The position numbers and the translations under genes were made by a program. From Komagataella phaffii GS115 (taxonomy: Eukaryota; Ascomycota; Pichiomycetes; Pichiales; Pichiaceae): 64,000 nt of DNA. The notes beneath the pieces were generated by a model. The model was not told the DNA's origin and did no database searches. It saw only the letters and a list, made by a program, of their open reading frames with translations. This document shows positions 929 to 37,155 of the stretch, one piece after another (position 1 is the first letter of the stretch; each line of letters opens with the position of its first letter). The stretch spans positions 1 through 64,000 of the forward strand of contig NC_012966.1 of assembly GCF_000027005.1 (NCBI RefSeq), given 5' to 3'.

Positions 929-3900
929 TCTTTTTTCCTGGTTTTGGTTTTTAGTAGTTTGCTGGCTTAACTGAAACTCTTAAGTACTATTGCGTTTATA
1001 TAACGCAATTTTAGATGTAATTTTTTTAGTGAATTTAAACCCCCGGCTCTCAACGATTAACCATAGACAGAATAGGCAATCCTCTATTACAAAATAAAAA
1101 GCACTCATTCTTGCATGTTCCCCAATCAAAAGAAACAAAAAAAATCCACTTCGTGTATATTCCTTAATACAAACACGTGCAGTGCATCTAAGAAGCAGAA
1201 ACTTTTGACAAAACCGATCCTTAAAATAATGAAAGCAGCTGGGTTGATCAACTGTTATAAGATATAGATCAATCCAATGACCATTCTGTTGTTTAGAAAT
1301 TGTGATGCACTTTTGGCACTTTAGAGCGGCTCTGATTTTTCCATAACCTTGTGCAACAGATCGAATAAAAATGCTTGGATGAACTTTGCGTAAGCATGAG
1401 AGGGTTGCTGCAATCAAAAAAAAAATGATAAACCCTAATCTTGGAATTGGCGTTTCAATTCAAGCACTAACAAAACAGGCAGTTAGTACTCTAAGATGAG
1501 AAGGATTTGCATTGCTGCATATTCCTAAACTAATAAACGCGCTAAAGTTTATGTCGTATAATGCAGGATATGCAATAAGTTTCACCAAATGAATTTTTCG
1601 TACACCTTTCTTGACTAATAATAGATAACACAGCCAGAAAATTTGAAAAATCTTAGTTATAAATCGGTCAAAGCTATGCGCACATTATTTTAAAAATCAT
1701 GTCCAGTCTCAGCATTTGAAAAGCTGCTCTCTTGGAGCCATGCATATTACGTTCTGCATGAATGCTAGGATCTAATCGCTCTAATCCCAGCCAGTGTCAC
1801 ATACCTATACTTTTTCTTTCTAGCTGCAGCCGTGTGCTATGCTTGGCTGGCATGTCGTCGTGCTTTTCGAGTCTAAATTACTATTTGGGTGAAACAACAT
1901 TGCACTTCATGCAATCTAGCTGAAATAGGCAAGATTCAAATAAAAGAAAAAAAACAATTGTGGTTGTTGCATGAATCAAACTGATAATAGCTAAAGAATC
2001 GCAATAAGTATCAACACTTCAGTAGATACTCCAGACACAACACTAGGTTTAGGGCTAGATGTGGGACATATTCATTCCACAAATTTTGCTTCTACCCGGA
2101 TGAGCAGCTGGTATCTCAGTACAATAGTTTCTATTTATTTGTTAGAATGAAATAAGGTTCTGGCGATTGTCTGATGATTTTTTCTACTACATCAATATTT
2201 TACGCTTTGTGCTGGTCTACTTTCTCATGCACGCCCTTTTGAACGCAACAATTCTAAAAATTTCAGAATTGTCGTCTGCACATACGAAATAGGCATCTGG
2301 TCAGCAAAAAGTAAGTTAACCGTATAACCGCATAGACTTGAATTACTAATGTTCTCTGGTCTATATCATAGATTCAAAACATCCAGCATCCAACATACTG
2401 AGCCTATTTTTTTAGTGCCCGACTGAGGATTGATAACCAGCTAATTCAATTAACTGCCAAAAATTACTGCAACATCTACCGGACCGCAAACCTAATAGCA
2501 ACATTTAAATCTACTGCCATAAAGGTAATAGGATCGTCTAAATTAAGCAGAAAATTTTGACTGATTCTTACGCGGTTTTGTGCATGAATTATACAGCTTG
2601 TAGCTTGCCAATTTCGAACTCATCGTTCAGAGCAGCAATGTGGAGAATATGAAGACGATTTTTATAGAATTTTTGGAAGTATTGTAAATCTGGAATAACT
2701 ACAGTATGCTCCTCGGCTGGGTAATGTTGAGAGCTCAAATAAACCTTTCGCATTGTCATAAATGGCAAATCTGTTACAGGATCGAGCCTTAATGTCTCTT
2801 TCAATAATGGTTTCCTTTGGTTGTTCTCAATATAGCTGAGCAAATCACAACGAGCGCTGGAACTTCAAATAGTCAGCTCTTGTCCTAAAGACAATGATAG
2901 CAGAAATAAAATTTCAAACCCAAAAGGAAGAAGTTTGTTATGATCAGGTTGTTAGTATTTTTATCTAAATCCAATTCTGGCCTGAGCTTTAAATATAAGC
3001 GAATAAGGCCTTAGAGAAGAAAACAAACAAAACTGCTGTACACATGTACACATGGAGAATGCTCCAATAACTTCATCCGTCCTTCACTATAACGGAATCT
3101 CCAAAAAGAGATTGAAGATGAAATTTCAATACAACCTCAACTGTTTTGCTTAGACATTTGAGTAAACCAGCAAGAACTCGATATACCCGAATCGTTCGCA
3201 ATATTGCTAGCCTTCTATATTTGAGCTTCTGTACTTAATGTGTTTACTTTTATCTCATTATAACGCAGTGCTTTTTCAAAACTTGAGGAAAGATATTTCA
3301 GTCTAGATTTTGAATCTAGCAACCAGCATTGTCAGATGACAGAACTTGAAGTTGTTGCATAATTTCAAAAAAATAATTTAACGAATTAATAAATGCAATG
3401 CAGTACACGTCCGTAATGCAAATATTGGAACATATTTCCCATCTGAATTCTGGTTGTGCCATGCAACTAATAAAGAAGTCTCCTTAGTTTAATCAAGTGT
3501 TGAAAACAGACTCAGTGGATGAACTCTAGCGTGATTAAAGTACATAAATAAAGAGGACTTGCTGAATTTGAAAAAAGAATGGTACTAATATTTCTAAGCC
3601 TCGAGAAACGTAAGACCAATAAAAATGCGCACACACAGTCTCCATGTCTATATGGGAATACATGCAGTAATTTAGAGCTGCGTCACATAATAGTGCATAA
3701 AGATCATTTGCGTCTAGCATGGTCATTTTGTGCAGATAGCAAGATAAATTAGGAAAGTGAGGTGTAAATCCGAAGATTTCTATATAAGGGAATAGACTAA
3801 ACAGGATAGTACCATAAATAATTCTTAGTTCCCCACTTGATTTCGTGCATATTTTAAAACCAAATGTATGACCATCCTGCCACCTCAAGAAGGCACTTAT

Positions 3901-4930
3901 GCATATAGAGGGTAACGAGACCAGTATCAATGTATGTAATAAAATTTTAGACACTCGACTACAACGGACACCAGAGATGAGACGTAATCTTTAGTTAATT
4001 TTGCTGGTGAACCAAATCATCATGCGCATCGAAGTACAGTTACCAGCTTGGGTTAAGATCCTACTTCGAAGGGCACTTAAGCTAAGCCTGAAATTTAATT
4101 CACCGCTTGATTCTACTATATTTTGAAACATCGGACAAGCGTCCGTAAATAGAAAAGTATGGAATGTGATCCGATTGAAAATCATTTACATCCAACTAGC
4201 AAATATACCTGTAATTAAACCCTAAGAATAACTATGCTTATGCCAAGGAGTGATTCTTCTCAGAGGAGCCCATTAAAAATATATAGTTTAACGAGAACTT
4301 TAACTAATTTTGCAGTTTACGTACTAGGTGATGGTGTCACGTGCACTAAAAGATAAAATTCTTGGCTTAGCTGATTTTGGTATGGCTGCTGAACGTAAAG
4401 ATAATCAATAAAATTAGGATATACTACAAAAATACCAATATATGTATAGATGCAAACTGAAGAGGTGATGTAATATCTGAAAATTATTATTCTCTTGACA
4501 GTCAATTGTGATCCAGCATGGCTAGAAATTGTTCAAAATATATTCACTGAAAACACCTCGTCGTAGTACAAAGGGATAGATATCGAAATTCCACAAATAG
4601 ATATGCGTGTAGTGATGGCTCAAGATGGTTTAGCATGCAAGTACTTTGCTGTGAGAAAAAAAGAAACAAAGTCGCGCATGCTGCATAATTCCCAATCGGA
4701 ATAAGATCCACCTTGCAGCAAGGCTGAAGTCACTCTATGCACAATGTTCTCATCTTATTTACTTTTGGGTTGAAACTCTGTTTTAGTGGTTTTCATTTTT
4801 TAGATTTGTATCCGCATCCTTGTTGGCTTTCAATAGTGAACCGAAAGAACTGTTCAGTTTAAACACCAGTCAGCTTGTTTTCCGACGTCCATTTTCACAT
4901 ATCGACAATCTCAAGCTTGTATCACTCGAA
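929..4930. other. About 4 kb subtelomeric stretch without a credible gene
   Basis: Only short open frames occur here (the longest are about 139 and 145 residues), with no recognisable domain and many non-ATG starts. One minus-strand fragment at 2589-2843 contains an ExxR-like KETLRLDPV segment reminiscent of a cytochrome P450 K-helix, but nothing around it extends the match. Base composition is AT-rich with no obvious tandem repeats. The last 150 bp form the promoter of the gene at 4931. Confidence 0.6.
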
Positions 4931-20478: not shown

Positions 20479-21354
20479 TCATATAAAAGGTTTATCATAA
20501 TTCTCATCCTCAGTGATCGCATTATTTGCTTGTCGTTTGTGGAAATGTACCACATAATAAGTGGACAGGAAAATACACCCAGAAATAAACTCCATGGTTG
20601 TGGCCAGTACATACTCAGTGACGATAAAACTAGTTGACATTCCCGTTGATGCGTAATTCGCCATGGAAGCATAGTTTGCCCCTTGAATGAAAGGAGATAA
20701 TAAACCATACACACCTCTCACCAGCAGGAATGGAGTAGCTAAGAAAACAGATGCTAGCAAATAAGATCTAATGTTATCCAGGACTATAGCGCAGGCAGCC
20801 AAAGTCAACACAGCTAATGTTGACATTAGAAACAATGCTTGACCCGTTGCTCGAAGGCCTTTGCTGCTATTGATTCTGGCAAGATTGTTTCCGTACTCGT
20901 TAGTATTCACGCTGGCCAACAGGGTACCTCCCACTACCACCAATACATTGGCAACAACTGCTAAGCAATATAATAGAACGACTGTGTTGAGATTGAATCT
21001 TTTGAAACCCAGTAATGATTTTGACGAATCGAAAGAGGCACGTTTCGACCAAGATCCCCCATTGGCTTCCAAATAAGAAGCACACACCAAAAAGAGACTG
21101 ATAAGGATCAGTAAATAGTACGCTTCCGTTTTCAACACAATATAGGCGATGAGCCATTGTCGGGGGATGAATTCTTGTGCTGAGAAGCCTATCAAACATC
21201 CCTGCGCTGCGGCCCGAAGCAGACCAAATAAAAATAGTCCTGTATAGAAGGTCCTAATTGTCCTTTTCTTCCACAGGATGCTTATGCTGACGATAGCAAA
21301 GATACCGTATAGGATTGTAAACACAATCGCTGCTATAACGAAATGAACTGACAT
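20479..21354 (-). CDS. Seven-transmembrane fungal membrane protein of unknown function
   Basis: The 291-residue protein begins with a membrane segment (MSVHFVIAAIVFTILYGIFA) and has about seven hydrophobic helices separated by short loops. The FLFGLLRAAAQGCLIGF segment, where an Arg follows FGLL, resembles fungal 7TM families of the DUF7702/RTA1 kind; I cannot decide which. It ends in a short acidic cytosolic tail (ITEDENYDKPFI). No enzymatic motif is visible. It stands alone between gene-free stretches of about 2 kb on each side. It is probably a plasma-membrane or ER receptor- or lipid-related protein, but that is only a guess from topology. Confidence 0.7.
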   Translation of the reverse strand: MSVHFVIAAIVFTILYGIFAIVSISILWKKRTIRTFYTGLFLFGLLRAAAQGCLIGFSAQEFIPRQWLIAYIVLKTEAYYLLILISLFLVCASYLEANGGSWSKRASFDSSKSLLGFKRFNLNTVVLLYCLAVVANVLVVVGGTLLASVNTNEYGNNLARINSSKGLRATGQALFLMSTLAVLTLAACAIVLDNIRSYLLASVFLATPFLLVRGVYGLLSPFIQGANYASMANYASTGMSTSFIVTEYVLATTMEFISGCIFLSTYYVVHFHKRQANNAITEDENYDKPFI

Positions 21355-23396: not shown

Positions 23397-25043
23397 TTAA
23401 ACACGCTCAATATGATTGATCTCACCCTTAACTTCGTTAAATACCTGCGCAGCTTCAATTTGGACTCGACACTTGTGACCCTTAAATTTTCTGATGGGGA
23501 TTTTGTCATTGAACATTTCATCAATCTCTTCAAATGATCTACCAGCCGTCTCAGGTAGATAGAAAAAGAAAACAAGCAGGTACAATGCAGACAATCCTCC
23601 AAAGATGAACAGGACTTTGGATCCCATGTTAGCTTGATCAGGATTGAACATATATGGCAAGACAAAACTCCACATACACTGAATACCATTATTCAGGAAA
23701 CTACCTGTGGCAATGGTCTTTGATCTTAAATTGTTAGTTGGTACTTCACCAGATACAACATAAGCCCCTGGACCAATACTGGCATTATAGAAAAAGTTGT
23801 ACATGGCCATGAATGCGCAAGATGCCGTAACAGCGGGGATATTATTGATATTAAGCCCAAGACAAGCAACCAGCAAATTGAGAACAGCCATACATGTTGT
23901 TCCAATAATCATCAAAGATCTTCTTCCAAAGAAATCAAGAGTGAACCACGATGTTATGGTTCCGAAAATGGAAAGACCTTGAGCACCGCATGAAAGTTGA
24001 AATGATCTATCGTCAGTGAAACCAGCCAACTGATAATAGTATGTTGAGTAACCAGAAATAAAAGCCACACCGGAAAGGGGCTGGATAAGGAATGAGCACA
24101 CACCTGCAAGCGTTCTCTTGAAGTTTCTCTTGTAGAAAAGCTCCTGTAGAGACGAACCTTCTCCGTTGGCTAGTTGAGCTTCCTGAATGGTAACTTTCAT
24201 CAAAGCATATTGAGCCTCTACAAGATCTGAGCCCTTGTAAATTTTGTTCAAAGACTTTAAAGTTTTTTCAGTTTTGTCCTTGGTCAAAAGATAGTAAGGA
24301 GACTCGGGGAGGAACAAGCACCATACTATGGAGATACCAGCAATTATAAACTGAGGAATCATCATAGAACGGTAAGCCATACGGCCTACCTTATTTTGAG
24401 TCTTGTAGGTAATGATGTAGCACAAGAAAGGTCCAACACATAGAGCCAGGTTTATCGAAGCAATAGCAACACCTCTCAATGCCAGGGGCGAAATCTCAGC
24501 AATATACGCAGTGACAACAGTCAACAAAATTCCCAAACAGAAGGCATTGATAAATTTTCCAGCAAAAAATACCTCGATAGTCGTCGCAACAAACTCTAAA
24601 ATGACCGAAGGGATACTAAGCAATAAAGCAAACATAATGACCCATTTACGGCCCCATTTATCAGTTGTGAAAGAACCAAAAAAAGAACCAACAACTAGGG
24701 CACCTGTAGCACCTCCTGTGATAGCTGATTGCCAGTCAGCAGGCAAGACGTATCCTCCTTGATAGGCATTACCAAAGTCCTCTCTGAATCGAGGGATGGA
24801 TAGCACAATACCTCCAGCTTGACTTTCGTACCCCACTAGAATAGCAATGAATATACCAGCACAGATCCAAAAGAAAGCTTTAGGATAGGTTTTAATGGCT
24901 TCCCATTTGCTGAGGCCATGTTCAACTTCTTGCTGAGCTCTAGCCAGTTTCTCGAGTTCAGAGAATTCATAAGCAGTGACTGTCTTGGCGACTGATTGTA
25001 GCTCTTTTTCCTCGGCAGTTTGTTTGGAAGTAATAGAGCTCAT
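23397..25043 (-). CDS. MFS sugar porter, fungal glycoside/sugar H+ symporter type
   Basis: The 548-residue, 12-helix transporter carries sugar-porter signatures. These are DKWGRKW after helix 2, the RGVA segment after helix 4, PESPYYLL before the central loop, the DFFGRRSL repeat motif, and the terminal LPETAGRSFEEIDEMF. The N-terminus is a soluble 60-residue segment and the central loop is of normal length. The GYESQAGGIVLSIPRFREDFG start of helix 1 is typical of the maltose/alpha-glucoside permease branch rather than hexose facilitators. It is divergently transcribed from the alpha-L-rhamnosidase across a 314-bp shared promoter. This suggests that it imports the glycoside or rhamnose-containing sugar that the adjacent intracellular glycosidases cut (inference). 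Confidence 0.9.
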   Translation of the reverse strand: MSSITSKQTAEEKELQSVAKTVTAYEFSELEKLARAQQEVEHGLSKWEAIKTYPKAFFWICAGIFIAILVGYESQAGGIVLSIPRFREDFGNAYQGGYVLPADWQSAITGGATGALVVGSFFGSFTTDKWGRKWVIMFALLLSIPSVILEFVATTIEVFFAGKFINAFCLGILLTVVTAYIAEISPLALRGVAIASINLALCVGPFLCYIITYKTQNKVGRMAYRSMMIPQFIIAGISIVWCLFLPESPYYLLTKDKTEKTLKSLNKIYKGSDLVEAQYALMKVTIQEAQLANGEGSSLQELFYKRNFKRTLAGVCSFLIQPLSGVAFISGYSTYYYQLAGFTDDRSFQLSCGAQGLSIFGTITSWFTLDFFGRRSLMIIGTTCMAVLNLLVACLGLNINNIPAVTASCAFMAMYNFFYNASIGPGAYVVSGEVPTNNLRSKTIATGSFLNNGIQCMWSFVLPYMFNPDQANMGSKVLFIFGGLSALYLLVFFFYLPETAGRSFEEIDEMFNDKIPIRKFKGHKCRVQIEAAQVFNEVKGEINHIERV

Positions 25044-25357
25044 AGTTTCTGGGGAAATATCACAACGAATATTGCATTATTTATATATTCCAAACCTGCA
25101 GACTTCAATAATTTTATTTCTTGGGGTAATAAGCAGTGAACACCCCACGTCTACCGTTCATCGAGAAAAATGTTGAAAAACATCATTCATAACCTCTGCT
25201 ATCCGTACAAGCGTTTCCCCGTTGAACGCGAGATCGCTTTCTCCATATCTTATCAAAATACCGAAGGCGGAAAATAAGTTGAGATGCTCCGCACTTTTCA
25301 GTTAGAGCTCTGCTTTTAACTAGCTCCTTTTTGCAGTTTCGTTCAACTTCTGTAAAA
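25044..25357. promoter_or_regulatory. Shared divergent promoter, sugar porter and rhamnosidase
   Basis: A 314-bp interval drives genes on both sides. It contains a CCG-AAGG-CGG element at 25261-25270, an everted-triplet arrangement used by some zinc-cluster regulators such as Leu3. A TATA-like tatttatatattcc lies at about 25078-25091 on the transporter side. A zinc-cluster gene is part of the same cluster. Confidence 0.55.
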
Positions 25358-27346
25358 ATGTCTTTTGCAAAAAGTGTGTTAGAAGCCACCCCTAATGAGG
25401 GTGAATGGAACAAGAACAAGTTCTCACCGTCCTCTCGACGAGTGAATGCTCAGAAGATCCACCGCATTGAAGGGAACACTGAAAATGTGGAGAATCTGTT
25501 GGTGCAGGATACAACCAAAATTGCAGTGCTACATGGCTCAGATACTGCAGTTACTCTGGACTTTGGATTCAATACTTGCGGATTGGTTCAAATCGAATTC
25601 GACAATGACAATGATAATGATAAACACATTGAACTGTCTTTCTCTGAATCTAAACAGTTTATTGACAAGACTACTTCAGACAGGTCTATGGATTTCCTAA
25701 TGGAAGATCTCACTCTCAAGGTACTTTGCAAAGGTACTTATCAGATGCCATGGGTTTCCCAAAGAGGTGCATTCAGATACCTAACCCTCTGGACCCATGA
25801 AGAATCAAGATCTATTTCCATTAAAAGTATTAGTACTTATATGACATGCATGCCGTCCCTAGGAGAGGACTTGTCCCGATACTCTGGTTACTTCCATTCA
25901 AGTGACCAATTTGCCAATTCTCTCTGGTACGCGGGAGCATACACCATTCAACTAGCCACTATTCCCGTTGATTCAGGACGTAGGCATTCAGTTATAATGC
26001 CCAGAACTGGTTGGTTCAACGATGCACTAGCTGGCCTGAAGGATGCTTCGGAAATTCTAACAGATGGCGCACGTAGAGACAGAAGTGTATGGTCAGGAGA
26101 TCGTTCTGTTTCCCTATTAACCGAAGCAGTATGCTTCGATGGTGTTGGGGGACAAGCGGCTACTGACTGGCTTCTGACTCATCAGAAGGAATCTGGAGAG
26201 TTTCCATATGCTTGCAAACCAATTGATATGTATGGTTCAGACACATATCACCTTTGGTCCTTGGTTAATGTTTATGACTCCTTCAAGCTTACGGGAGACG
26301 ATACCACTGCATTGCATCACTGGCAGAGCTACAAGAAGGGTCTGGAATATTCGCGCAATAAAGTTTCTGAACTGGGCCTAATCAAAGTCACTAATGTACT
26401 TGACTGGGGGAGAGATGTGTTACAGAATCATGCAGCTAGCTGTAACATGATTTACTACCATACCTTGAACGGTGCTGTAGAACTGGCAACTCGATTTGGG
26501 GATGAGAAAGCGGCTTCTGAGTATGCTTCTCAGGCTAAAGAGTTAAAGTTACGCATCAACGAAGTTCTTTGGGACGAGCAGCATGGGATGTTCAAAGACA
26601 ACGAACTATCTTCTGTTCTTTCTCAAGATGCAAACTGTTTTGCTGTCTGGTTCGATGTCACTAGTGAAGAAAGAAAAGAGAGCATCTCTGAAAATCTTGC
26701 CAAAAGATGGACTAAGTTTGGAGCTCCTGCTGTGGAGTCTCCAGGTATGATCTCCCCATTCATCTCCAGTTGCGAATTATTTTGCCACTCTTTGGCTGGT
26801 CATCCAGAGAGAGCATTAGAACTGTTCCGAACTATGTGGGGTTATATCTGGAATTCCCCTTATGCTGTTCAATCTTCTTTGATTGAAGGATACTTCCAAG
26901 ATGGAAGTTGTAAGTATCCATTCACTCTTTATGATCCAGCTTACATTTCTCATGCTCATCCTTGGGCTACTGGTCCCACGGTGCTGCTGACTAACCACAT
27001 TGTTGGATTGAGCTTTGAACACGACCACTCTCAGTGGAATCTCTTCCCGGCAGGCATTTTCTCGGAGAATGCAATTGAATGGGCTCAAACAGGATTCACT
27101 TCCAAGACCAAGGGTTTCATCAGTGCGGGATATAAGTTTGAAAGGCATTTAAAATCTCTGGAATTGGCTGTAAAGAGCCCTAAGGAGACAAAGGGAAAGA
27201 TTGGAATTCCGTACGATTCAGATTACGCTATTTCTACGGTGACTCTAAATGGTGAGGTTCTTGGCACTGAAAAACTGGAAATCCAAGAGAAATACTATGT
27301 AGTTTCGGTCAAGGAGAGTGTTACCGTTATAGTTTCATATTGTTAG
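25358..27346 (+). CDS. Alpha-L-rhamnosidase, GH78, cytosolic
   Basis: The 662-residue protein starts at the ATG at 25358; an extra 9 codons upstream come only from a TTG. There is no signal peptide, so it should act in the cytosol. An N-terminal beta-rich part precedes an (alpha/alpha)6-barrel. The GH78 hallmark DGARRDRSVWSGD (about 236-248) contains the acidic residues expected in the active site. It is followed by conserved barrel segments such as NVLDWGRDV, HPWATGPT and WNLFPAGIF. GH78 enzymes release terminal L-rhamnose from plant glycosides such as rutinosides and pectin fragments. The gene is followed by a beta-glucosidase 301 bp downstream on the same strand and faces a sugar porter. 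A short DNDNDND run (from gacaatgacaatgataat) near 25608-25623 is a coding microsatellite. Confidence 0.9.
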   Translation: MSFAKSVLEATPNEGEWNKNKFSPSSRRVNAQKIHRIEGNTENVENLLVQDTTKIAVLHGSDTAVTLDFGFNTCGLVQIEFDNDNDNDKHIELSFSESKQFIDKTTSDRSMDFLMEDLTLKVLCKGTYQMPWVSQRGAFRYLTLWTHEESRSISIKSISTYMTCMPSLGEDLSRYSGYFHSSDQFANSLWYAGAYTIQLATIPVDSGRRHSVIMPRTGWFNDALAGLKDASEILTDGARRDRSVWSGDRSVSLLTEAVCFDGVGGQAATDWLLTHQKESGEFPYACKPIDMYGSDTYHLWSLVNVYDSFKLTGDDTTALHHWQSYKKGLEYSRNKVSELGLIKVTNVLDWGRDVLQNHAASCNMIYYHTLNGAVELATRFGDEKAASEYASQAKELKLRINEVLWDEQHGMFKDNELSSVLSQDANCFAVWFDVTSEERKESISENLAKRWTKFGAPAVESPGMISPFISSCELFCHSLAGHPERALELFRTMWGYIWNSPYAVQSSLIEGYFQDGSCKYPFTLYDPAYISHAHPWATGPTVLLTNHIVGLSFEHDHSQWNLFPAGIFSENAIEWAQTGFTSKTKGFISAGYKFERHLKSLELAVKSPKETKGKIGIPYDSDYAISTVTLNGEVLGTEKLEIQEKYYVVSVKESVTVIVSYC

Positions 27347-27647
27347 TCTACATATTTGTTAAATGAACTAGATGACCAAATTTTTTACAAGGTTAGAACT
27401 TACTTTATCATTCATTCGAAGATCCGAATTCCGGGATCTTTCTACATTTCCGGCATGACTTCAGGGCTTTCATCTCCGGAATTTAATGAAGTTTGATTGC
27501 ATTCAGTGCATATTATTGTTGCGGGGCAATTGTGCCTTCCTTCGTGTGCGGAAACTGTTAAAAAATGTTCCGCGTTCCCCAGATTTTCGTTTAAGGTTAA
27601 AGGCGCTCAAAGATCCCTTCTCCCTTCTTTTCAAAATAAAACTCAAA
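27347..27647. promoter_or_regulatory. Promoter of the GH3 beta-glucosidase with TCCGG elements
   Basis: This 301-bp gap contains three similarly oriented (T/C)TCCGG elements at 27429-27434, 27448-27453 and 27474-27479. The first lies inside an imperfect palindrome GATCCGAATTCCGGGATC. CGG triplets suit control by a zinc-cluster factor such as the one encoded downstream. An upstream open frame in this region begins at another ATG (27486) but adds a basic unrelated N-terminus, so I do not use it. Confidence 0.5.
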
Positions 27648-30167
27648 ATGACTCAATTAGATGTCGAATCATTGATTCAAGAACTCACACTAAATGAAAA
27701 GGTTCAACTTCTGTCCGGATCAGACTTTTGGCACACCACCCCAGTTAGACGTCTAGGAATTCCAAAGATGAGATTATCTGACGGTCCTAACGGCGTCCGA
27801 GGAACCAAGTTTTTCAATGGAGTTCCAACCGCATGTTTTCCTTGTGGTACTGGATTAGGTGCCACTTTCGATAAAGAACTTCTAAAAGAAGCTGGCTCCT
27901 TGATGGCAGACGAAGCTAAAGCAAAAGCTGCCTCGGTAGTTTTGGGTCCTACAGCTAACATTGCTCGAGGCCCCAACGGAGGAAGAGGCTTCGAATCTTT
28001 TGGAGAGGATCCAGTGGTTAATGGATTATCTAGTGCTGCAATGATTAATGGATTGCAAGGTAAATATATTGCGGCTACCATGAAACATTATGTTTGTAAC
28101 GATTTAGAGATGGATCGTAATTGCATTGATGCACAGGTGTCTCACAGAGCTCTAAGAGAAGTGTACCTTCTTCCATTCCAAATTGCGGTAAGAGATGCAA
28201 ATCCTCGCGCTATCATGACTGCTTATAATAAAGCAAACGGTGAACATGTATCTCAGTCAAAGTTTCTTCTAGATGAGGTTTTGAGAAAAGAATGGGGCTG
28301 GGATGGTTTGTTAATGTCCGATTGGTTCGGTGTGTACGATGCAAAGTCTTCTATCACTAATGGTCTTGACCTGGAAATGCCTGGTCCACCTCAGTGCAGA
28401 GTCCATTCGGCAACCGATCATGCCATCAATTCTGGGGAGATACACATAAATGATGTCGATGAGCGGGTGCGAAGCCTCTTAAGTTTAATTAACTATTGTC
28501 ACCAGAGTGGCGTCACTGAGGAGGATCCGGAGACATCCGATAACAACACCCCAGAGACCATCGAAAAACTCAGAAAAATCAGTAGAGAATCAATCGTCTT
28601 GCTGAAGGATGATGACAGGAACAGAAGTATCCTTCCTCTGAAGAAGTCAGATAAAATTGCCGTGATTGGAAACAATGCTAAGCAGGCTGCATATTGCGGA
28701 GGAGGTTCTGCTTCTGTTCTCTCGTACCATACTACAACTCCTTTCGACTCTATCAAATCACGATTGGAAGATTCAAACACTCCAGCTTACACCATCGGTG
28801 CTGATGCTTACAAGAACCTTCCGCCTTTGGGCCCTCAGATGACAGACAGCGATGGAAAACCGGGGTTCGACGCCAAATTTTTTGTTGGCTCGCCTACATC
28901 TAAAGATAGAAAGCTGATTGATCACTTTCAGTTGACCAATTCACAAGTCTTCCTGGTTGACTACTATAATGAACAGATCCCTGAAAACAAAGAGTTTTAC
29001 GTAGACGTTGAAGGGCAATTCATTCCTGAGGAAGATGGAACCTATAACTTTGGCTTGACCGTATTCGGAACGGGAAGATTATTCGTGGATGATAAGCTGG
29101 TTTCCGATAGTAGCCAAAACCAGACCCCTGGAGATTCCTTTTTTGGACTAGCAGCTCAAGAGGTTATCGGGTCCATTCATTTGGTCAAGGGTAAAGCATA
29201 TAAAATAAAGGTTCTTTATGGATCCAGTGTCACCAGAACATATGAAATTGCAGCCAGTGTTGCTTTTGAAGGAGGAGCATTTACTTTTGGTGCAGCAAAA
29301 CAAAGAAATGAAGATGAAGAAATTGCTAGAGCTGTGGAAATTGCTAAGGCAAATGATAAAGTGGTGTTGTGCATAGGTCTAAATCAAGACTTTGAAAGTG
29401 AGGGATTCGACAGGCCGGATATCAAAATTCCTGGAGCAACCAACAAGATGGTAAGTGCTGTTTTGAAGGCTAACCCTAACACTGTGATCGTCAACCAAAC
29501 AGGAACCCCAGTCGAGATGCCATGGGCCAGTGACGCTCCAGTGATCTTGCAGGCTTGGTTTGGGGGGTCTGAGGCAGGGACCGCTATAGCTGATGTACTA
29601 TTCGGTGACTACAACCCTAGCGGAAAACTAACGGTTACTTTTCCCTTGAGATTTGAGGATAACCCTGCATATCTCAACTTCCAATCCAATAAGCAAGCAT
29701 GTTGGTATGGGGAAGACGTTTATGTGGGCTACAGATATTACGAGACCATAGACAGGCCTGTGTTATTCCCATTTGGCCACGGATTGTCATTCACCGAATT
29801 TGATTTTACCGACATGTTTGTCAGGCTTGAAGAAGAAAACCTTGAAGTTGAGGTTGTAGTCAGAAACACAGGAAAGTATGATGGTGCTGAAGTTGTGCAG
29901 TTGTACGTAGCACCAGTATCCCCATCCCTGAAAAGGCCCATCAAAGAACTCAAGGAATATGCTAAGATTTTCTTAGCCAGTGGTGAGGCAAAAACAGTTC
30001 ACCTGAGCGTTCCTATTAAGTATGCCACTTCGTTCTTTGACGAATATCAGAAGAAATGGTGCTCCGAGAAAGGAGAGTACACAATCTTACTGGGATCCAG
30101 CTCAGCAGATATTAAAGTTTCGCAATCTATTACTTTAGAAAAAACAACTTTTTGGAAAGGTTTATAG
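27648..30167 (+). CDS. Beta-glucosidase, GH3 with PA14 insert, cytosolic
   Basis: I start the protein at the ATG at 27648 (839 residues) because MTQLDVESLIQELTLNEKVQLL is the typical GH3 opening; the 54 codons upstream look like leader sequence. Domains in order are the GH3 N-terminal TIM barrel with catalytic nucleophile D225 in GLLMSDWFGVYD, the substrate loop KHYVCNDLE, a PA14 insert at about 400-550, the GH3 C-terminal domain, and a fibronectin-III-like tail. This is the architecture of Kluyveromyces Bgl1-type beta-glucosidases. There is no signal peptide, so it is cytosolic. It hydrolyses beta-glucosides; after removal of rhamnose by the neighbouring GH78 it could release glucose from a rutinoside-like compound (inference). 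Confidence 0.92.
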   Translation: MTQLDVESLIQELTLNEKVQLLSGSDFWHTTPVRRLGIPKMRLSDGPNGVRGTKFFNGVPTACFPCGTGLGATFDKELLKEAGSLMADEAKAKAASVVLGPTANIARGPNGGRGFESFGEDPVVNGLSSAAMINGLQGKYIAATMKHYVCNDLEMDRNCIDAQVSHRALREVYLLPFQIAVRDANPRAIMTAYNKANGEHVSQSKFLLDEVLRKEWGWDGLLMSDWFGVYDAKSSITNGLDLEMPGPPQCRVHSATDHAINSGEIHINDVDERVRSLLSLINYCHQSGVTEEDPETSDNNTPETIEKLRKISRESIVLLKDDDRNRSILPLKKSDKIAVIGNNAKQAAYCGGGSASVLSYHTTTPFDSIKSRLEDSNTPAYTIGADAYKNLPPLGPQMTDSDGKPGFDAKFFVGSPTSKDRKLIDHFQLTNSQVFLVDYYNEQIPENKEFYVDVEGQFIPEEDGTYNFGLTVFGTGRLFVDDKLVSDSSQNQTPGDSFFGLAAQEVIGSIHLVKGKAYKIKVLYGSSVTRTYEIAASVAFEGGAFTFGAAKQRNEDEEIARAVEIAKANDKVVLCIGLNQDFESEGFDRPDIKIPGATNKMVSAVLKANPNTVIVNQTGTPVEMPWASDAPVILQAWFGGSEAGTAIADVLFGDYNPSGKLTVTFPLRFEDNPAYLNFQSNKQACWYGEDVYVGYRYYETIDRPVLFPFGHGLSFTEFDFTDMFVRLEEENLEVEVVVRNTGKYDGAEVVQLYVAPVSPSLKRPIKELKEYAKIFLASGEAKTVHLSVPIKYATSFFDEYQKKWCSEKGEYTILLGSSSADIKVSQSITLEKTTFWKGL

Positions 30168-30312
30168 TAACTAACGAAAGCTTAGTAAGTAGACTTAATA
30201 TAATCTCACTAGTAAGAGTAAGGTAGAGGATACCGATTAAAGGTATGATAGATACTTTCGCGAACAGTATCATCATAAATGTGTGGGTTCCTGAGAACTC
30301 TCCGCCTTTATA

Positions 30313-32751
30313 ATGACAGATCAGCAAGCATCCATAGTGGTACCCAAAATTTACCGAACCAAGCGGCGTGTCACTCACAATTCTAAAGGCAGAGCGATCT
30401 ATAGCTGTGATAGATGTAAATTAAAGAAAAGAGCTTGCAAACGAGTTGCCGTAGAAGGTTCTTCAAATGTTATTCAAAGTGACGTACCTTGTGAGGGGTG
30501 TAAGAAAGCTTCTGTACCTTGTAAGACTACAATCACTCGCAAATCTAAGTTCAAAGTTCCAGTTGCCAGTCTAGGATTGCATTACAGATGTTTGTTGTTG
30601 ATAATGGATGGTTTGTTTCCTCATATCGATGTCAAGAACATAGACAGTTTGATAGATCTTGGTAATTCGTTGCACCTGAGAATGCCTTCCAGAGATGGCG
30701 ATTTTAGTGAAGAAGATCTAAAGAGCATGGAAGATACATCTTTGCTGATCACTTCTACGAAATGGTTCAAGCCAAGCATGAAAATTTTTGACGATATTGG
30801 CACAGAGCATCAGCGATCTCAGGAGAAAGAAGGATCCTTGAAGCACAAGCCAGATATATCTCAAGAGCAAGCGTTAGCAGAACCACTCCAGGAAACTTCA
30901 GACGCGCTATCTGTACCAGTTGTCCATAATCAGATGAAAATTTTGGAGCCCAGGAAGGTCAAGCAGCCGGTGAGCTATTCAATGGATGGTCCCCTCGTCT
31001 ATGATAACGTTGAACTGATTGATAACTATGGTAATAAGCATTACTTGGGACCTTTTTCAAGCATCACATTGATGGGAACATTTGGTAACATCATTACGTC
31101 AAAAATTGGGGATACTTCCAAGCTCAAACTCAATAAATTTAGAGAAAATGCCAATGATATGAATTTTGCAATGCTTAGGGATGGAAAGGGCTATACGCCA
31201 TCACTGATCCGTGAGGGATTTCCTACCTTGAGGCCGATAAAGGGATTGACGAGATCTGTTATGGACAGGTGGTTGGAAGTGTTTGTCGGCCAAATTCATC
31301 CCATATATACCTGTTTTGATGAGGAAGATTTGCTAGGCAAATACCAAAAGTTAGTAATAGATCTCCAGTTAGCCGAAAAAACTAACAAATCTGTTCTTGG
31401 TCTCCCCAACGACGAAGTTTGCAAGTTCTACAGTATATTTCTGCTTGGTGACACTTTCATGACGCATAATAACGACTCCAGGCGCTATGATCCGGTTATT
31501 CAAAGCTTGTCACATTTTGTTGAGATCAATCTTTCTAGCTTACTTCTCACGCCAACGCTTGCTGGAGTACAGAGTGAGTTTCTTTATGGACTTTACCTGG
31601 GAACGCAAGGTCAGAAGGAGGGGTCATATTTATTAGTCGAACTTGCATATCGCCAGTGCCTTACAATGGGTTATCAAAGAGAAGCTTTGTACTCGTATAA
31701 AAGACTGATTAATGAGGGAGAGATTAAAACGACATTTTGGAGCATAGTGCAACAAGAAATCTACTTGAGTACATTTATGGGAAGAATATCGGGAATACAA
31801 TTGGAAGAGATCAATATCAAGCCATACTCAGGTGAATTATCAGCCCTGAAGAGAAGTGACAGGGTTGCTTCTTTTTTTAGGGAAGAGAAGGTAGATCTAT
31901 GCAAGCTTTGTTACAATCTGTTACAGTATCGCAAAGAAATTACGTTTAGTAGCAAGAAGCTATTGGCTGCGTCAAACGAAGAAAAAGCCATTCGATGTAA
32001 TAATCGATTAAACAGCTGGATTTCGAATTTTAATTTCAATCTTTCATCGTTACTGGTTGAGAAAGAGAATCCCAATACTGACAAAACTGCTCTCGTTTAC
32101 TCAACATTTCCAGAGGAGATGTGGATACGGATACATCACTCTTACTACATCATAAGCCTTTGCGAGCCATTCTTACTATATTTGCTTGGTCAGACTGAAT
32201 CCCTGACTGTAAATGCAGGTGACCCTTTAATGAGTTTGATCATAGATGCAGTTAAAGCTTCCCAGCATATAATTGACATGATACTTTACTTTGATCAAGT
32301 ATCAGAGAACCTGGAGTTTTTTGACAATTTTTCAATCCTATCCTTAGCGACTCAATGCCTGTTGATAACAGACATTATTATCTCCATGAATCAGTATTCT
32401 TCGGTTCATTTGGATGAGGAATACTTGAATTCAGAGCATGGAATCAACGAGCCAAGCCTTCAAGATCATATACATAAATCGTCGAGAATCCTGGAAGACA
32501 ATATCGAAAGCCCCCATTCGAGTGTTAGAAGTTTATGTGAATCCACCATAGCTTCCCGGGATGATGTGCAGGCGCTGAAGGAAGCTTTAAAAAAGAATTC
32601 CCAAATATTTGAGAGTCAACAGTCTCTTTCGTTTCTTCAAAAAGACCTCTCTTTCATCTTTCCAATCAATGGGGAGTTTTCCTTCAGCGGTAATACAGAA
32701 CTCAATGATGTTTTATTTGGGGATCCAGAGTATCTCAAATTTAATAGTTAA
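30313..32751 (+). CDS. Zn2Cys6 transcription factor next to the glycosidase cluster
   Basis: The 812-residue protein has an N-terminal zinc cluster with cysteines at 32, 35, 42, 60, 63 and 70. The C3-C4 loop of 17 residues is longer than the usual 5-12. A basic linker follows (TRKSKFK), then a fungal-specific transcription factor middle domain containing WLEVFVGQIHPIYTCFDEEDL (about 325-345) and 'YLLVELAYRQCLTMGYQRE'. The C-terminal region is acidic and Ser-rich. It lies 146 bp downstream of the beta-glucosidase on the same strand. Cluster-linked zinc-cluster regulators usually control the adjacent catabolic genes in response to the substrate, so it is the natural candidate activator of the porter, GH78 and GH3 genes (inference). 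Confidence 0.88.
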   Translation: MTDQQASIVVPKIYRTKRRVTHNSKGRAIYSCDRCKLKKRACKRVAVEGSSNVIQSDVPCEGCKKASVPCKTTITRKSKFKVPVASLGLHYRCLLLIMDGLFPHIDVKNIDSLIDLGNSLHLRMPSRDGDFSEEDLKSMEDTSLLITSTKWFKPSMKIFDDIGTEHQRSQEKEGSLKHKPDISQEQALAEPLQETSDALSVPVVHNQMKILEPRKVKQPVSYSMDGPLVYDNVELIDNYGNKHYLGPFSSITLMGTFGNIITSKIGDTSKLKLNKFRENANDMNFAMLRDGKGYTPSLIREGFPTLRPIKGLTRSVMDRWLEVFVGQIHPIYTCFDEEDLLGKYQKLVIDLQLAEKTNKSVLGLPNDEVCKFYSIFLLGDTFMTHNNDSRRYDPVIQSLSHFVEINLSSLLLTPTLAGVQSEFLYGLYLGTQGQKEGSYLLVELAYRQCLTMGYQREALYSYKRLINEGEIKTTFWSIVQQEIYLSTFMGRISGIQLEEINIKPYSGELSALKRSDRVASFFREEKVDLCKLCYNLLQYRKEITFSSKKLLAASNEEKAIRCNNRLNSWISNFNFNLSSLLVEKENPNTDKTALVYSTFPEEMWIRIHHSYYIISLCEPFLLYLLGQTESLTVNAGDPLMSLIIDAVKASQHIIDMILYFDQVSENLEFFDNFSILSLATQCLLITDIIISMNQYSSVHLDEEYLNSEHGINEPSLQDHIHKSSRILEDNIESPHSSVRSLCESTIASRDDVQALKEALKKNSQIFESQQSLSFLQKDLSFIFPINGEFSFSGNTELNDVLFGDPEYLKFNS

Positions 32752-34337: not shown

Positions 34338-37155
34338 TCAAACCATCAGGGTCAGGAAAAAACCCGACACAACAGAAAATAGCAGTGATACTTCAAAAGT
34401 CGAACCAGAATTTTCGTCGTATAAAGATGATACCTGAACTGAAATTGCTGAACTTGTTGAAAACGATGGTACGCTCGCACGTGAGTTTCCTCCTGAGCTG
34501 ACGCTTGAAATAGCACTTGGAATATCACTTGGATTACCACCACCAATAGGTTGAGTAGGTGTAGTAATAATTCCTGGCTTATCATTTGGATGAGAAGGCG
34601 GACTTCCACCACCAATAGATCCAGTAGAAGTAATAAAATCAGTCTTTGTTTTATCTTCAGGGGATGAAAGTGTAATTTTTGAGGGGGGTTGAGAAATAAT
34701 AACAGTAACATCTCCAGGCCCAGTAGGCGTGATGTATTGTGTTTTGGATTCCGAACACTGAGAACATGGAACAACAGACGTAATTGTTCGTTTATCTGTC
34801 TTAGTAGAGATGGAAGAAGTGTTGAAGTAGCCGAAAGGAGTTTCAATAATAACAGTGCCCGGAATAGTTCCACTTGGTGGGACAGTGTAAGTAGTTTTGT
34901 AAACACCAGTCCATGGCTGCGTGGTAGTTACATAGGAACCTGGAACATCAGGGGTCTCGACGATAACGGTGCCTGGCTCGGTTCCACTTGGTGGGACGGT
35001 GTAAGTGGTCTCGTAAGTACCAGTCCATGGCTGCGTGGTAGTCACATAGGAACCTGGAACATCAGGGGTCTCAACAACAACGGTACCTGGCTCAGTGCCG
35101 GTAGGTGGAACAGTATGGGTTGTCTCGTAAGTACCAGTCCATGGCTGCGTGGTAGTCACATAGGAACCTGGAACATCAGGGGTCTCGACGATAACGGTGC
35201 CTGGCTCGGTTCCACTTGGTGGGACGGTGTAAGTAGTCTCGTAAGTGCCGGTCCATGGTTGGGTAGTAGTTACGTAACTCTCAGGGGTCTCGATAATAAC
35301 AGTTCCTGGTTGGGTGCCACTTGGTGGGACGGTGTAAGTAGTCTCGTAAGTGCCGGTCCATGGTTGGGTGGTAGTTACGTAACTCTCAGAGGGTCTCGAT
35401 AATAACAGTTCCTGGCTCGGTTCCACTTGGTGGGACGGTGTAAGTAGTCTCGTAAGTGCCGGTCCATGGTTGGGTGGTAGTTACGTAACTCTCGGGAGTC
35501 TCGATGATAACGGTGCCTGGTTCAGTACCGGTAGGTGGGACGGTGTAAGTAGTCTCGTAAGTGCCGGTCCATGGTTGGGTNGTAGTTACGTAACTCTCAG
35601 GGGTCTCGATAATAACAGTTCCTGGCTCGGTTCCACTTGGTGGNACGGTGTAAGTGGTCTCGTAAGTACCGGTCCATGGTTGGGTAGTGGTCACGTACGT
35701 TTCACAGTTTGTATCTCCTGGACAGCAGAAAGTTTCACAGTCACAAACGTCTCTCCTTCTAAGTGGGTCTGATGTTGGCACTGCTCCACAACAAACTGCC
35801 TCACAATCAGTAATTTCGGGAGTCTCAATCACAACAGTTCCTGGCTCAGTACCTGAAGGCGGAACCGTGTAAGTGGTCTCGTAAGTACCAGTCCACGGTT
35901 GGGTAGTAGTTACGTAACTCTCNGGNGTCTCGATNATAACANTTCCTGGCTCNGTNCCNNNNGGNGGNACNGTGTAAGTNGTCTCGTAAGTNCCNGTCCA
36001 NGGTTGGGTNGTAGTTACGTAACTCTCAGGNGTCTCGATGATAACAGTTCCTGGNTCAGTACCNGNAGGNGGNACNGTGTAAGTNGTCTCGTAAGTNCCN
36101 GTCCANGGTTGGGTNGTAGTTACGTAACTCTCGGGAGTCTCGATGATAACNGTNCCTGGNTCNGTNCCNNTNGGTGGGACGGTGTAAGTAGTCTCGTAAG
36201 TNCCNGTCCANGGTTGGGTNGTAGTTACGTAACTCTCNGGAGTCTCGATNATAACANTTCCTGGNTCNGTNCCNNTNGGNGGNACNGTGTAAGTAGTCTC
36301 GTAAGTGCCGGTCCATGGTTGGGTNGTAGTNACGTAACTCTCNGGNGTCTCGATNATAACAGTTCCTGGTTNNGTNCCNNTNGGTGGNACNGTNTANGTN
36401 GTCTCGTAAGTACCAGTCCACGNNTGGGTAGTAGTAGTAAAATATTCCACATCTGGCGTGCACGTTCCTGGACTAAGATTGTTGGGAAACTGGTATACAA
36501 AAGCCCCAAGTGAAGTTATGCTGGCTCCGCTAGGCAGAACTACTCTCAAATCAAGGGATCCAATGTTTCCTATGTTTGTATATGTCACTCTTAGAGGGTA
36601 ATATTTTCCTGCCTCTAGATAAATAGTTGCAGATAAGATTTGGTCTGTAGCAGTATGAGGGTATACAGAATACAAGGAGTATTCGGCTGATTGTTCAGGC
36701 AAAATATAATCGGAGTTACAACAGTCAAATGCTCCTGCCTTACCAAAGAACACCATTGCAGCATCATCGACATTGGCTCCGTTGAAGTCAATGGTATACT
36801 GACCAGTAATTGGTGGTCGAAAGTATCCCTTTAATTCCATCGAGAAATTATAAAGATATACGTTAGGGCGTCCATACAAGGTTCCGTAGGCACTATTTGC
36901 TCCCTGACCTTGGTAGTAGAAGTAGGGGCTAATTATATTGGAAATAGTGTCGTACAACCTTCCCTCCTTGTATCGGTAGCGCACATAAGTCTTGAGTTCC
37001 GCATTGGATATTGCCATATTAGGAAACTCATAGAGATTAGCAACAAATCCGGTTGATCTTGGAGAGGTTGCAATAGAGCAACCATATGAATCATCAGCCA
37101 GCACATTCACTGCGCTGAGCAAAAAGAATACAAAAGATTGCAATTGTAACTTCAT
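34338..37155 (-). CDS. GLEYA/PA14-type GPI-anchored adhesin with tandem repeats (frameshift and ambiguous bases)
   Basis: From the ATG at 37155 the product has a signal peptide (MKLQLQSFVFFLLSAVNVLA). A head domain of about 220 residues follows, with the PA14/GLEYA pattern: ELKGYFRPPITGQYTIDFNG, a DDAAMVFFGKAGAFDCC segment and YYPLRVTYTNIG. Next is a long stalk of 35- and 38-residue repeats with core YVTTTQPWTGTYETTYTVPP. The end is a Ser/Thr-rich region and a GPI signal (hydrophobic SLLFSVVSGFFLTLMV). GLEYA heads are lectin-like ligand-binding modules of yeast cell-wall adhesins. The frame breaks at about 35389, where one unit has 106 instead of 105 bp, splitting it into two open frames. About 840 bp of the array (35581-36423) is peppered with N. 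I read it as one gene with an unresolved repeat array; the frameshift may be a sequence error. Confidence 0.85.
34850..35260 (-). repeat. 38-residue (114-bp) adhesin repeats with DVPG insertion
   Basis: The downstream part of the stalk uses a longer unit. The marker cataggaacc recurs at 34931, 35045 and 35159, a 114-bp period. The unit equals the 105-bp type plus three residues: the ETPE junction becomes ETPDVPG. The last unit toward the C-terminus has diverged (GVYKTTYTV). Confidence 0.85.
35265..36430 (-). repeat. 35-residue (105-bp) adhesin repeats, partly unresolved
   Basis: The marker tacgtaactc recurs at 35271, 35376 and 35482 and onward. The normal step is 105 bp; the second step is 106 bp, producing the frameshift. 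N bases occur mostly at fixed positions in each unit between 35581 and 36423, the pattern expected when near-identical repeat copies are collapsed into one consensus. The true copy number is therefore unknown. Confidence 0.85.
35701..35815 (-). other. Cysteine-rich module interrupting the adhesin stalk
   Basis: Between two repeat blocks the protein has a non-repeat segment of about 38 residues with eight cysteines, including two CC pairs (EAVCCGAV and ETFCCPGD). The basic tract LRRRD lies between the two halves and resembles a Kex2-type cleavage context. It could form a disulfide knot or a processing point in the stalk; neither is shown by sequence alone. Confidence 0.7.

What the first reader, a model, noticed from the sequence alone, without database searches (positions are those of the whole stretch)
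23397..32751. Candidate rhamno-glucoside uptake and intracellular hydrolysis cluster
Four adjacent genes encode an MFS sugar porter, a GH78 alpha-L-rhamnosidase without signal peptide, a GH3/PA14 beta-glucosidase without signal peptide, and a Zn2Cys6 regulator. The porter and rhamnosidase share a 314-bp divergent promoter. Established knowledge: GH78 removes L-rhamnose and GH3 removes beta-glucose. Inference: the cell imports intact rhamno-glucosides (for example rutinose or flavonoid rutinosides) and takes them apart in the cytosol. That is a different strategy from the secreted rhamnosidases usual in filamentous fungi.
Basis: partly seen in the sequence, partly recalled or inferred. Interest (0 to 1): 0.82.

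Follow-up and report, generated by a model that had tools for sequence, protein, structure and literature searches.

The report
Yeast gene cluster for eating rhamnosides
Near a chromosome end, a Komagataella yeast keeps side by side a sugar-uptake protein, two sugar-cutting enzymes that appear to stay inside the cell, and a regulator, which together look like a kit for importing and digesting plant sugars that carry rhamnose and glucose; this is likely but untested.

Summary
A sugar porter, a GH78 rhamnosidase, a GH3/PA14 beta-glucosidase and a Zn2Cys6-type regulator lie together at 23.4-32.8 kb of a Komagataella chromosome. One correction: homology places the GH3 start at 27648, not 27486. 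The genome search found one GH78, one GH3, no GH1 and no evident GH13 maltase; other sugar porters are at most 30% identical. In K. kurtzmanii, GH3, GH78 and porter carry consecutive locus tags, so the order is conserved, but all three deposited models are damaged, including an active-site Asp changed to Asn: perhaps joint decay. The near-identical K. pastoris GH78 falls in a clade in which 16 of 16 members lack signal-like N-termini, two of them filamentous fungi. Published tests show growth on L-rhamnose but not on cellobiose, salicin, arbutin or maltose, so the GH3 and the porter need another substrate. The layout is a MAL-locus plan with the maltase replaced by a rhamnosidase and a beta-glucosidase. 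Cytosolic use of rhamno-glucosides is the best reading; substrate, transport and induction are untested. No promoter element clearly shared with the L-rhamnose (LRA) genes was found, and linkage outside Komagataella was not shown.

The parts
23397..25043 (-). MFS sugar porter, 548 aa, SP family; relatives that bear a function name are called alpha-glucoside or maltose permeases, some hexose transporters
25044..25357 (.). 314-bp divergent promoter region shared by porter and GH78
25358..27346 (+). GH78 alpha-L-rhamnosidase-family protein, 662 aa, no signal-like N-terminus
26063..26065 (+). codon of Asp236 in the DGARRDRSVWSGD motif of GH78; Asn in the K. kurtzmanii protein
26885..26887 (+). codon of Glu510 (LIEGY) of GH78, aligned with the Glu of FWEKY in PDB 3cih and of IEGY in 8iwd and 8hmm; catalytic role recalled
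27347..27647 (.). GH3 promoter region, 301 bp with the corrected start; 10 CGG/CCG triplets
27648..30167 (+). GH3/PA14 beta-glucosidase-family protein, 839 aa (start corrected from 27486)
30313..32751 (+). Zn2Cys6-type transcription factor, 812 aa; no other match in the genome at E<=0.001

Best explanation
A catabolic cluster on the plan of yeast MAL loci, used for rhamnose-bearing beta-glucosides. The porter brings small rhamno-glucosides (rutinose-type disaccharides or their small glycosides) into the cytosol. The signal-less GH78 enzyme removes L-rhamnose, which goes to the LRA pathway encoded elsewhere in the same genome. The GH3/PA14 enzyme then removes beta-linked glucose. The adjacent Zn2Cys6-type factor switches the genes on when such a glycoside or a breakdown product is inside. 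Shown: gene families, single GH78 and GH3 matches, lack of signal-like N-termini, conserved order of three genes in K. kurtzmanii, presence of LRA genes. Inferred: substrate, direction of transport, order of hydrolysis, induction.
For: GH78 aligns over residues 22-619 of 662 with a solved enzyme named alpha-L-rhamnosidase (8iwd, E 7e-99) and keeps the DG-RRDR-W-GD and IEGY motifs. GH3 aligns with 'Beta-glucosidase I' 3abz (E 2.9e-263). One GH78 and one GH3 match in the genome, adjacent; no GH1. PF00128 gives two matches, in open frames of 687 and 1595 aa, which I take for glycogen enzymes (recalled), so no GH13 maltase is evident for a maltose-type porter (GH31 was not searched). Published tables for P. 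pastoris list growth on L-rhamnose but not on cellobiose, salicin, maltose or sucrose (PMC4734642 Table 2; PMC9798597) nor arbutin. LRA1, LRA2, TRC1, LRA4 and LRA3 lie elsewhere in the genome (domains of LRA4, LRA3, LRA1), in the order given in PMC4891683 and PMC4408588. K. kurtzmanii locus tags LJB42_000913/914/915 are GH3/GH78/porter. All three K. kurtzmanii models are damaged, which fits loss as one unit. MAL loci also pair a permease divergently with a hydrolase that works inside the cell and often add an activator (PMC6070925 passages).
Against: No expression or growth data on any rhamnoside were found. Porter relatives occur in Ogataea, for which no GH78 is named among the listed hits, so the porter family is not tied to rhamnosides; some relatives at 41-42% identity are annotated as hexose transporters. 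In Brettanomyces nanus the GH78 and porter relatives are on contigs of different length, and in Kuraishia the closest GH3 is on a contig other than that of both GH78 genes. No element clearly shared with LRA promoters stood out against 40 background pieces. The regulator shows no more than zinc-cluster-level likeness to TRC1 (E 0.30). GH5-domain matches at four places were not examined, so other beta-glucosidase activity is not excluded.
Confidence: 0.55

Rival explanations
1. The two hydrolases serve separate substrates. The porter imports several small plant beta-glucosides and rhamnosides, GH3 cuts one class and GH78 another, and they share only the regulator and the locus.
For: GH3 proteins of this type are listed from many yeasts for which no GH78 is listed, and the porter family is wider than GH78.
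Against: The species does not grow on cellobiose or salicin or arbutin, and this is its only GH3 match.
Confidence: 0.2
2. The porter takes up L-rhamnose or another monosaccharide, as RhtA does beside the secreted GH78 RhaB in Aspergillus niger, and the intracellular enzymes have an incidental role.
For: rhaB-rhtA in A. niger pairs a GH78 with an L-rhamnose transporter (PMC5161314 passages). The L-rhamnose porter of this yeast is not identified in what I read. Some porter relatives are annotated as hexose transporters.
Against: RhtA is described as having a FucP domain structure, with the SP family named among other MFS families; this porter scores above the SP-family cut-off, and several relatives are annotated as alpha-glucoside or maltose permeases. 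A cytosolic GH78 needs its glycoside inside the cell.
Confidence: 0.1
3. The cluster detoxifies plant glycosides such as saponins rather than feeding the cell.
For: Rhamnose and glucose are common in such glycosides (recalled); a position near a contig end suits accessory traits.
Against: None of the four genes looks like an efflux pump or an oxidising enzyme, and the genome has the LRA pathway to use released rhamnose.
Confidence: 0.08
4. The cluster is a relic that is poorly expressed or being lost.
For: All three K. kurtzmanii models are damaged; no phenotype is recorded in what I read.
Against: All four frames are intact in the window, and the K. pastoris GH78 is full length and 95% identical.
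Confidence: 0.07

Closest known systems
Yeast MAL loci (permease, alpha-glucosidase, activator)
   Same: permease divergent from the hydrolase over a shared promoter, often with an activator gene nearby (PMC6070925 passages)
   Different: the maltase is replaced by GH78 plus GH3; no GH13 maltase evident in this genome
Aspergillus niger rhaB-rhtA pair under RhaR
   Same: GH78 gene next to a transporter gene, control by the regulator RhaR (PMC5161314 passages)
   Different: there the GH78 is predicted to be secreted and the transporter carries L-rhamnose and has a FucP domain; no GH3 mentioned in the passages
Lactiplantibacillus plantarum rhaP2B2P1B1 locus
   Same: permease plus rhamnosidase genes, linking uptake to intracellular metabolism (PMC13298368 passage)
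   Different: bacterial; no GH3 or Zn2Cys6 factor mentioned in the passage
Cytosolic GH3/PA14 'Beta-glucosidase I' (PDB 3abz; Kluyveromyces origin and cytosolic site recalled)
   Same: near full-length alignment, GH3 with PA14
   Different: here fixed beside a rhamnosidase, in a yeast reported not to grow on cellobiose or salicin
Rhamnosidases of Papiliotrema laurentii and Pichia angusta X349
   Same: yeast rhamnosidases; the first stated to be intracellular (PMC9225045 passages)
   Different: no gene or cluster identified in the passages read

Membership tests
GH78 alpha-L-rhamnosidase | six-hairpin catalytic domain over Pfam cut-off | tested here: met
   PF17389 62.5 bits, cut-off 24.5
GH78 alpha-L-rhamnosidase | conserved acidic motif (DG..RDR..W.GD) and C-terminal Glu | tested here: met
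   aligned to 8iwd, 8hmm and 3cih; catalytic roles recalled
GH78 alpha-L-rhamnosidase | rhamnosidase activity | not testable with these tools
   needs an enzyme assay
GH3/PA14 beta-glucosidase I | GH3 N, PA14 within the GH3 C domain, Fn3-like | tested here: met
   SDW motif with Asp225, nucleophile role recalled
GH3/PA14 beta-glucosidase I | beta-glucosidase activity | not testable with these tools
   needs an enzyme assay
MFS sugar porter (SP) family | score above the TIGR00879 cut-off | tested here: met
   256.9 bits, cut-off 237.8
alpha-glucoside permease (MAL) group | orthology to a characterised MAL permease | tested here: inconclusive
   only annotated names among hits, some of them hexose transporters; no characterised reference sequence was at hand
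Zn2Cys6 regulator | six-cysteine zinc cluster | tested here: inconclusive
   cysteine spacing present from residue 32; Pfam Zn_clus not hit at E<=0.001, Fungal_trans hit
MAL locus | alpha-glucosidase gene in the cluster | tested here: not met
   GH78 and GH3 instead; it may work like a MAL locus but is not one
rhaB-rhtA pair | secreted GH78 | tested here: not met
   no signal-like N-terminus by hydropathy
LRA/TRC1 regulon | shared promoter element with LRA genes | tested here: inconclusive
   longest shared words 7-11 bases against up to 11-12 in 40 background pieces

The most novel reading that the evidence does not exclude
A eukaryotic regulon that imports intact rhamno-glucosides, evolved by fitting a MAL-type permease and activator plan with a cytosolic GH78 clade and the genome's only GH3 beta-glucosidase. 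Because that enzyme answers only to a rhamnoside inducer, the yeast scores cellobiose- and salicin-negative although it encodes it; the whole unit is lost together in K. kurtzmanii.
Probability: 0.33. Interest if true: 0.7.

Novelty: new variant of a known kind. Interest (0 to 1): 0.5.

Why it matters
The host genus includes a leading protein-production yeast, for which rhamnose-inducible promoters have been developed (PMC4891683). A native cytosolic rhamnosidase and beta-glucosidase would matter to anyone making or converting flavonoid glycosides in it, and their promoters may be inducible by plant glycosides. If true, it gives a porter candidate for whole-cell conversion of glycosides, where uptake is a stated bottleneck (PMC13298368 passages), and it explains a beta-glucosidase gene in a yeast reported not to use cellobiose or salicin.

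Tried and rejected
Shared LRA promoter element: not supported. The longest common words between the three cluster promoters and the four LRA promoters were 7 to 11 bases, against up to 11-12 with 40 background intergenic pieces. The best hint is an 11-base word shared by the GH3 and LRA4 promoters, a length that 1 of the 40 background pieces also reaches for the GH3 promoter. The GH3 promoter is rich in CGG/CCG (3.32 per 100 bp), but 3 of 40 background pieces are higher.

Regulator as a TRC1 paralogue: rejected (BLASTP E 0.30; no second match in the genome).

Linkage by matching contig lengths across the three protein lists: only K. kurtzmanii (contig 369848) gave all three genes. In Kuraishia, two GH78 and two porter relatives share one 2.37-Mb contig length, positions unknown; the closest GH3 and a further porter share another, so this is inconclusive. 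B. nanus genes have different contig lengths. The lists show the best 120 of 561, 186 and 6601 hits and only the longest contig per entry.

Published mention: the listings showed no paper on this native cluster in titles or abstract starts; several listings show 20 of more papers. One search used guessed locus names and found none. PMC4408588 Table 5 lists a 'MAL31' porter of this yeast, log2 +0.81 on methanol and +0.68 in limiting glucose; whether it is this gene could not be settled.

PF03328 as the LRA4 family: wrong family, one weak match; PF00701 found it.

Telomere repeat in the window: only scattered single matches, no array.
Full report
What is there. The window is the first 64 kb of contig C4 (1,778,296 bases) of a 9.2-Mb, four-contig genome. 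The nearest named relatives are K. pastoris (GH78 95% identical over 100%) and K. kurtzmanii (98% over the aligned 44%), so it is a Komagataella. K. phaffii is my inference from size and chromosome number. Four open frames lie together: porter 23397-25043(-), GH78 25358-27346(+), GH3/PA14, and regulator 30313-32751(+). The GH3 ORF is listed from 27486, but homology begins at 27648. The database's own entry for the ORF uses an upstream TTG (P0241), which I set aside. The 314-bp divergent spacer is as described.

More than chance. The genome search gave one GH78 match, one GH3 match and no GH1 match. Four GH5-domain matches exist and were not examined. The porter has 18 match rows, itself included; the others are 23-30% identical. 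The regulator matches only itself. The only GH78 and the only GH3 being neighbours is roughly a 2-in-5,000 event (gene number recalled).

Location in the cell. By hydropathy, GH78 has no signal-like N-terminus, nor has GH3 from its homologous start (0.60 and 0.42; 1.67 if GH3 began at 27486). I built a tree of 72 GH78 relatives out of the 120 listed, chosen by length (600-760 aa, plus the 485-aa B. nanus protein). The window protein itself was not a row; its 95%-identical K. pastoris relative was. That relative and K. kurtzmanii sit in a set of 16 in which 16 of 16 lack signal-like N-termini (SH-aLRT 97): also Kuraishia (two), Brettanomyces nanus, Lipomyces, one Xylariales, Grosmannia and eight unnamed sequences. 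The two Ceratobasidium/Rhizoctonia proteins next to it have one. Elsewhere the label is mixed (33 with, 21 without, by this rough rule; 14 changes needed on the tree). The tree is midpoint-rooted and a quick search, with long branches flagged. So a single loss of secretion in this clade is plausible, but it is not unique to yeasts.

Active sites. GH78 keeps DGARRDRSVWSGD (Asp236) and LIEGY (Glu510) against 8iwd, 8hmm and 3cih. The weak alignment to 2okx is shifted by a few residues at that Glu. GH3 keeps the SDW motif at Asp225 (role recalled).

Sister species. These models are damaged: GH3 ends early and has an altered stretch, the porter lacks its start and two internal stretches, and GH78 lacks about 80 residues and runs past the normal end. 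Of 12 GH78 positions where window and K. kurtzmanii differ with all three Komagataella present, 8 are changes on the K. kurtzmanii side, 3 on the window side and 1 is undecided. Three of the 8 (236 D to N, 426 N to K, 535 P to H) hit residues identical in K. pastoris and all five other rows; at one of the 8 (262) K. kurtzmanii instead agrees with four of the five other rows. That looks like relaxed selection on the whole unit, but I saw proteins only, and no control gene from that assembly, so assembly or gene-model error remains possible.

Metabolic setting. The L-rhamnose pathway is present: LRA1 (L016:4450-5223), LRA2 (L014:426-1394), TRC1 (L014:1620-4433) and LRA4 (L014:4481-5407), and LRA3 (L013:4588-5832). 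Domains were checked for LRA4, LRA3 and LRA1; LRA2 and TRC1 are named by order and, for TRC1, by its zinc cluster in view. Order and content agree with PMC4891683 (first of four parts read) and PMC4408588 section 11. Published growth tables for P. pastoris list L-rhamnose and trehalose positive; cellobiose, salicin, arbutin, maltose, sucrose and methyl-alpha-glucoside negative (PMC4734642 Table 2 in passages; PMC9798597 passages, without arbutin). So the GH3 and the maltose-type porter do not serve those sugars under test conditions. A rhamnose-bearing glycoside is the simplest remaining substrate. This is inference by exclusion; lack of inducer would give the same negatives.

The porter. It scores above the SP-family cut-off. 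Relatives with a function name at 38-47% identity include alpha-glucoside and maltose permeases, but others at 41-42% are called hexose transporters; all these names look automatic. In a tree of 56 of the 120 listed porters it stands alone beside a group with Kuraishia, Ogataea, Cyberlindnera and C. jaroonii (support 94), with four Kuraishia paralogues. No GH78 named as Ogataea is listed. Hence the porter may well carry small glycosides, but nothing ties it to rhamnosides except its neighbours.

Regulation. The factor is not TRC1-like beyond the zinc cluster. I found no element clearly shared with the LRA promoters. Co-regulation is therefore an inference from layout.

Comparison. The plan (permease divergent from a hydrolase acting inside, activator alongside) is that of yeast MAL loci (PMC6070925 passages), with other hydrolases. 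A. niger rhaB-rhtA (PMC5161314 passages) pairs a GH78 with a transporter, but with a predicted secreted enzyme and a FucP-type L-rhamnose transporter. Bacterial permease-rhamnosidase loci exist (PMC13298368 passages), and an intracellular yeast rhamnosidase is reported (PMC9225045 passages). So the idea is not new in kind; this gene set in this yeast was not seen in the listings of my searches. I file it as a new variant of a known kind.

Verdict. Observation confirmed with one corrected start; interpretation partly supported. Confidence 0.55 for cytosolic use of rhamno-glucosides.

Noticed in passing
L011:8020-9609, L012:1938-3314, L015:2225-3301 and 3624-4559 (C4 about 1,113-1,130 kb): A sugar porter, a second mandelate-racemase-type dehydratase, a zinc alcohol dehydrogenase and a second LRA4-like (DHDPS-family) protein lie within about 17 kb, with other genes between: perhaps a second non-phosphorylating sugar-acid pathway.
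   Followed up: partly
35386-37155: GLEYA/PA14 adhesin-like ORF with many N positions, mostly single, between 35581 and 36424, in a repeat region.
   Followed up: no
2-979: The contig starts inside a repeat-bearing open frame that resembles a cell-surface adhesin to my eye, so the chromosome end itself seems to be missing.
   Followed up: no
P0002, P0122, P0242 (K. kurtzmanii): All three deposited models of the cluster are damaged, with an Asp to Asn change in the GH78 active-site motif.
   Followed up: partly
20479-21354: 291-aa protein with several hydrophobic stretches and no Pfam or NCBIfam match at E<=0.001, next to the porter.
   Followed up: no
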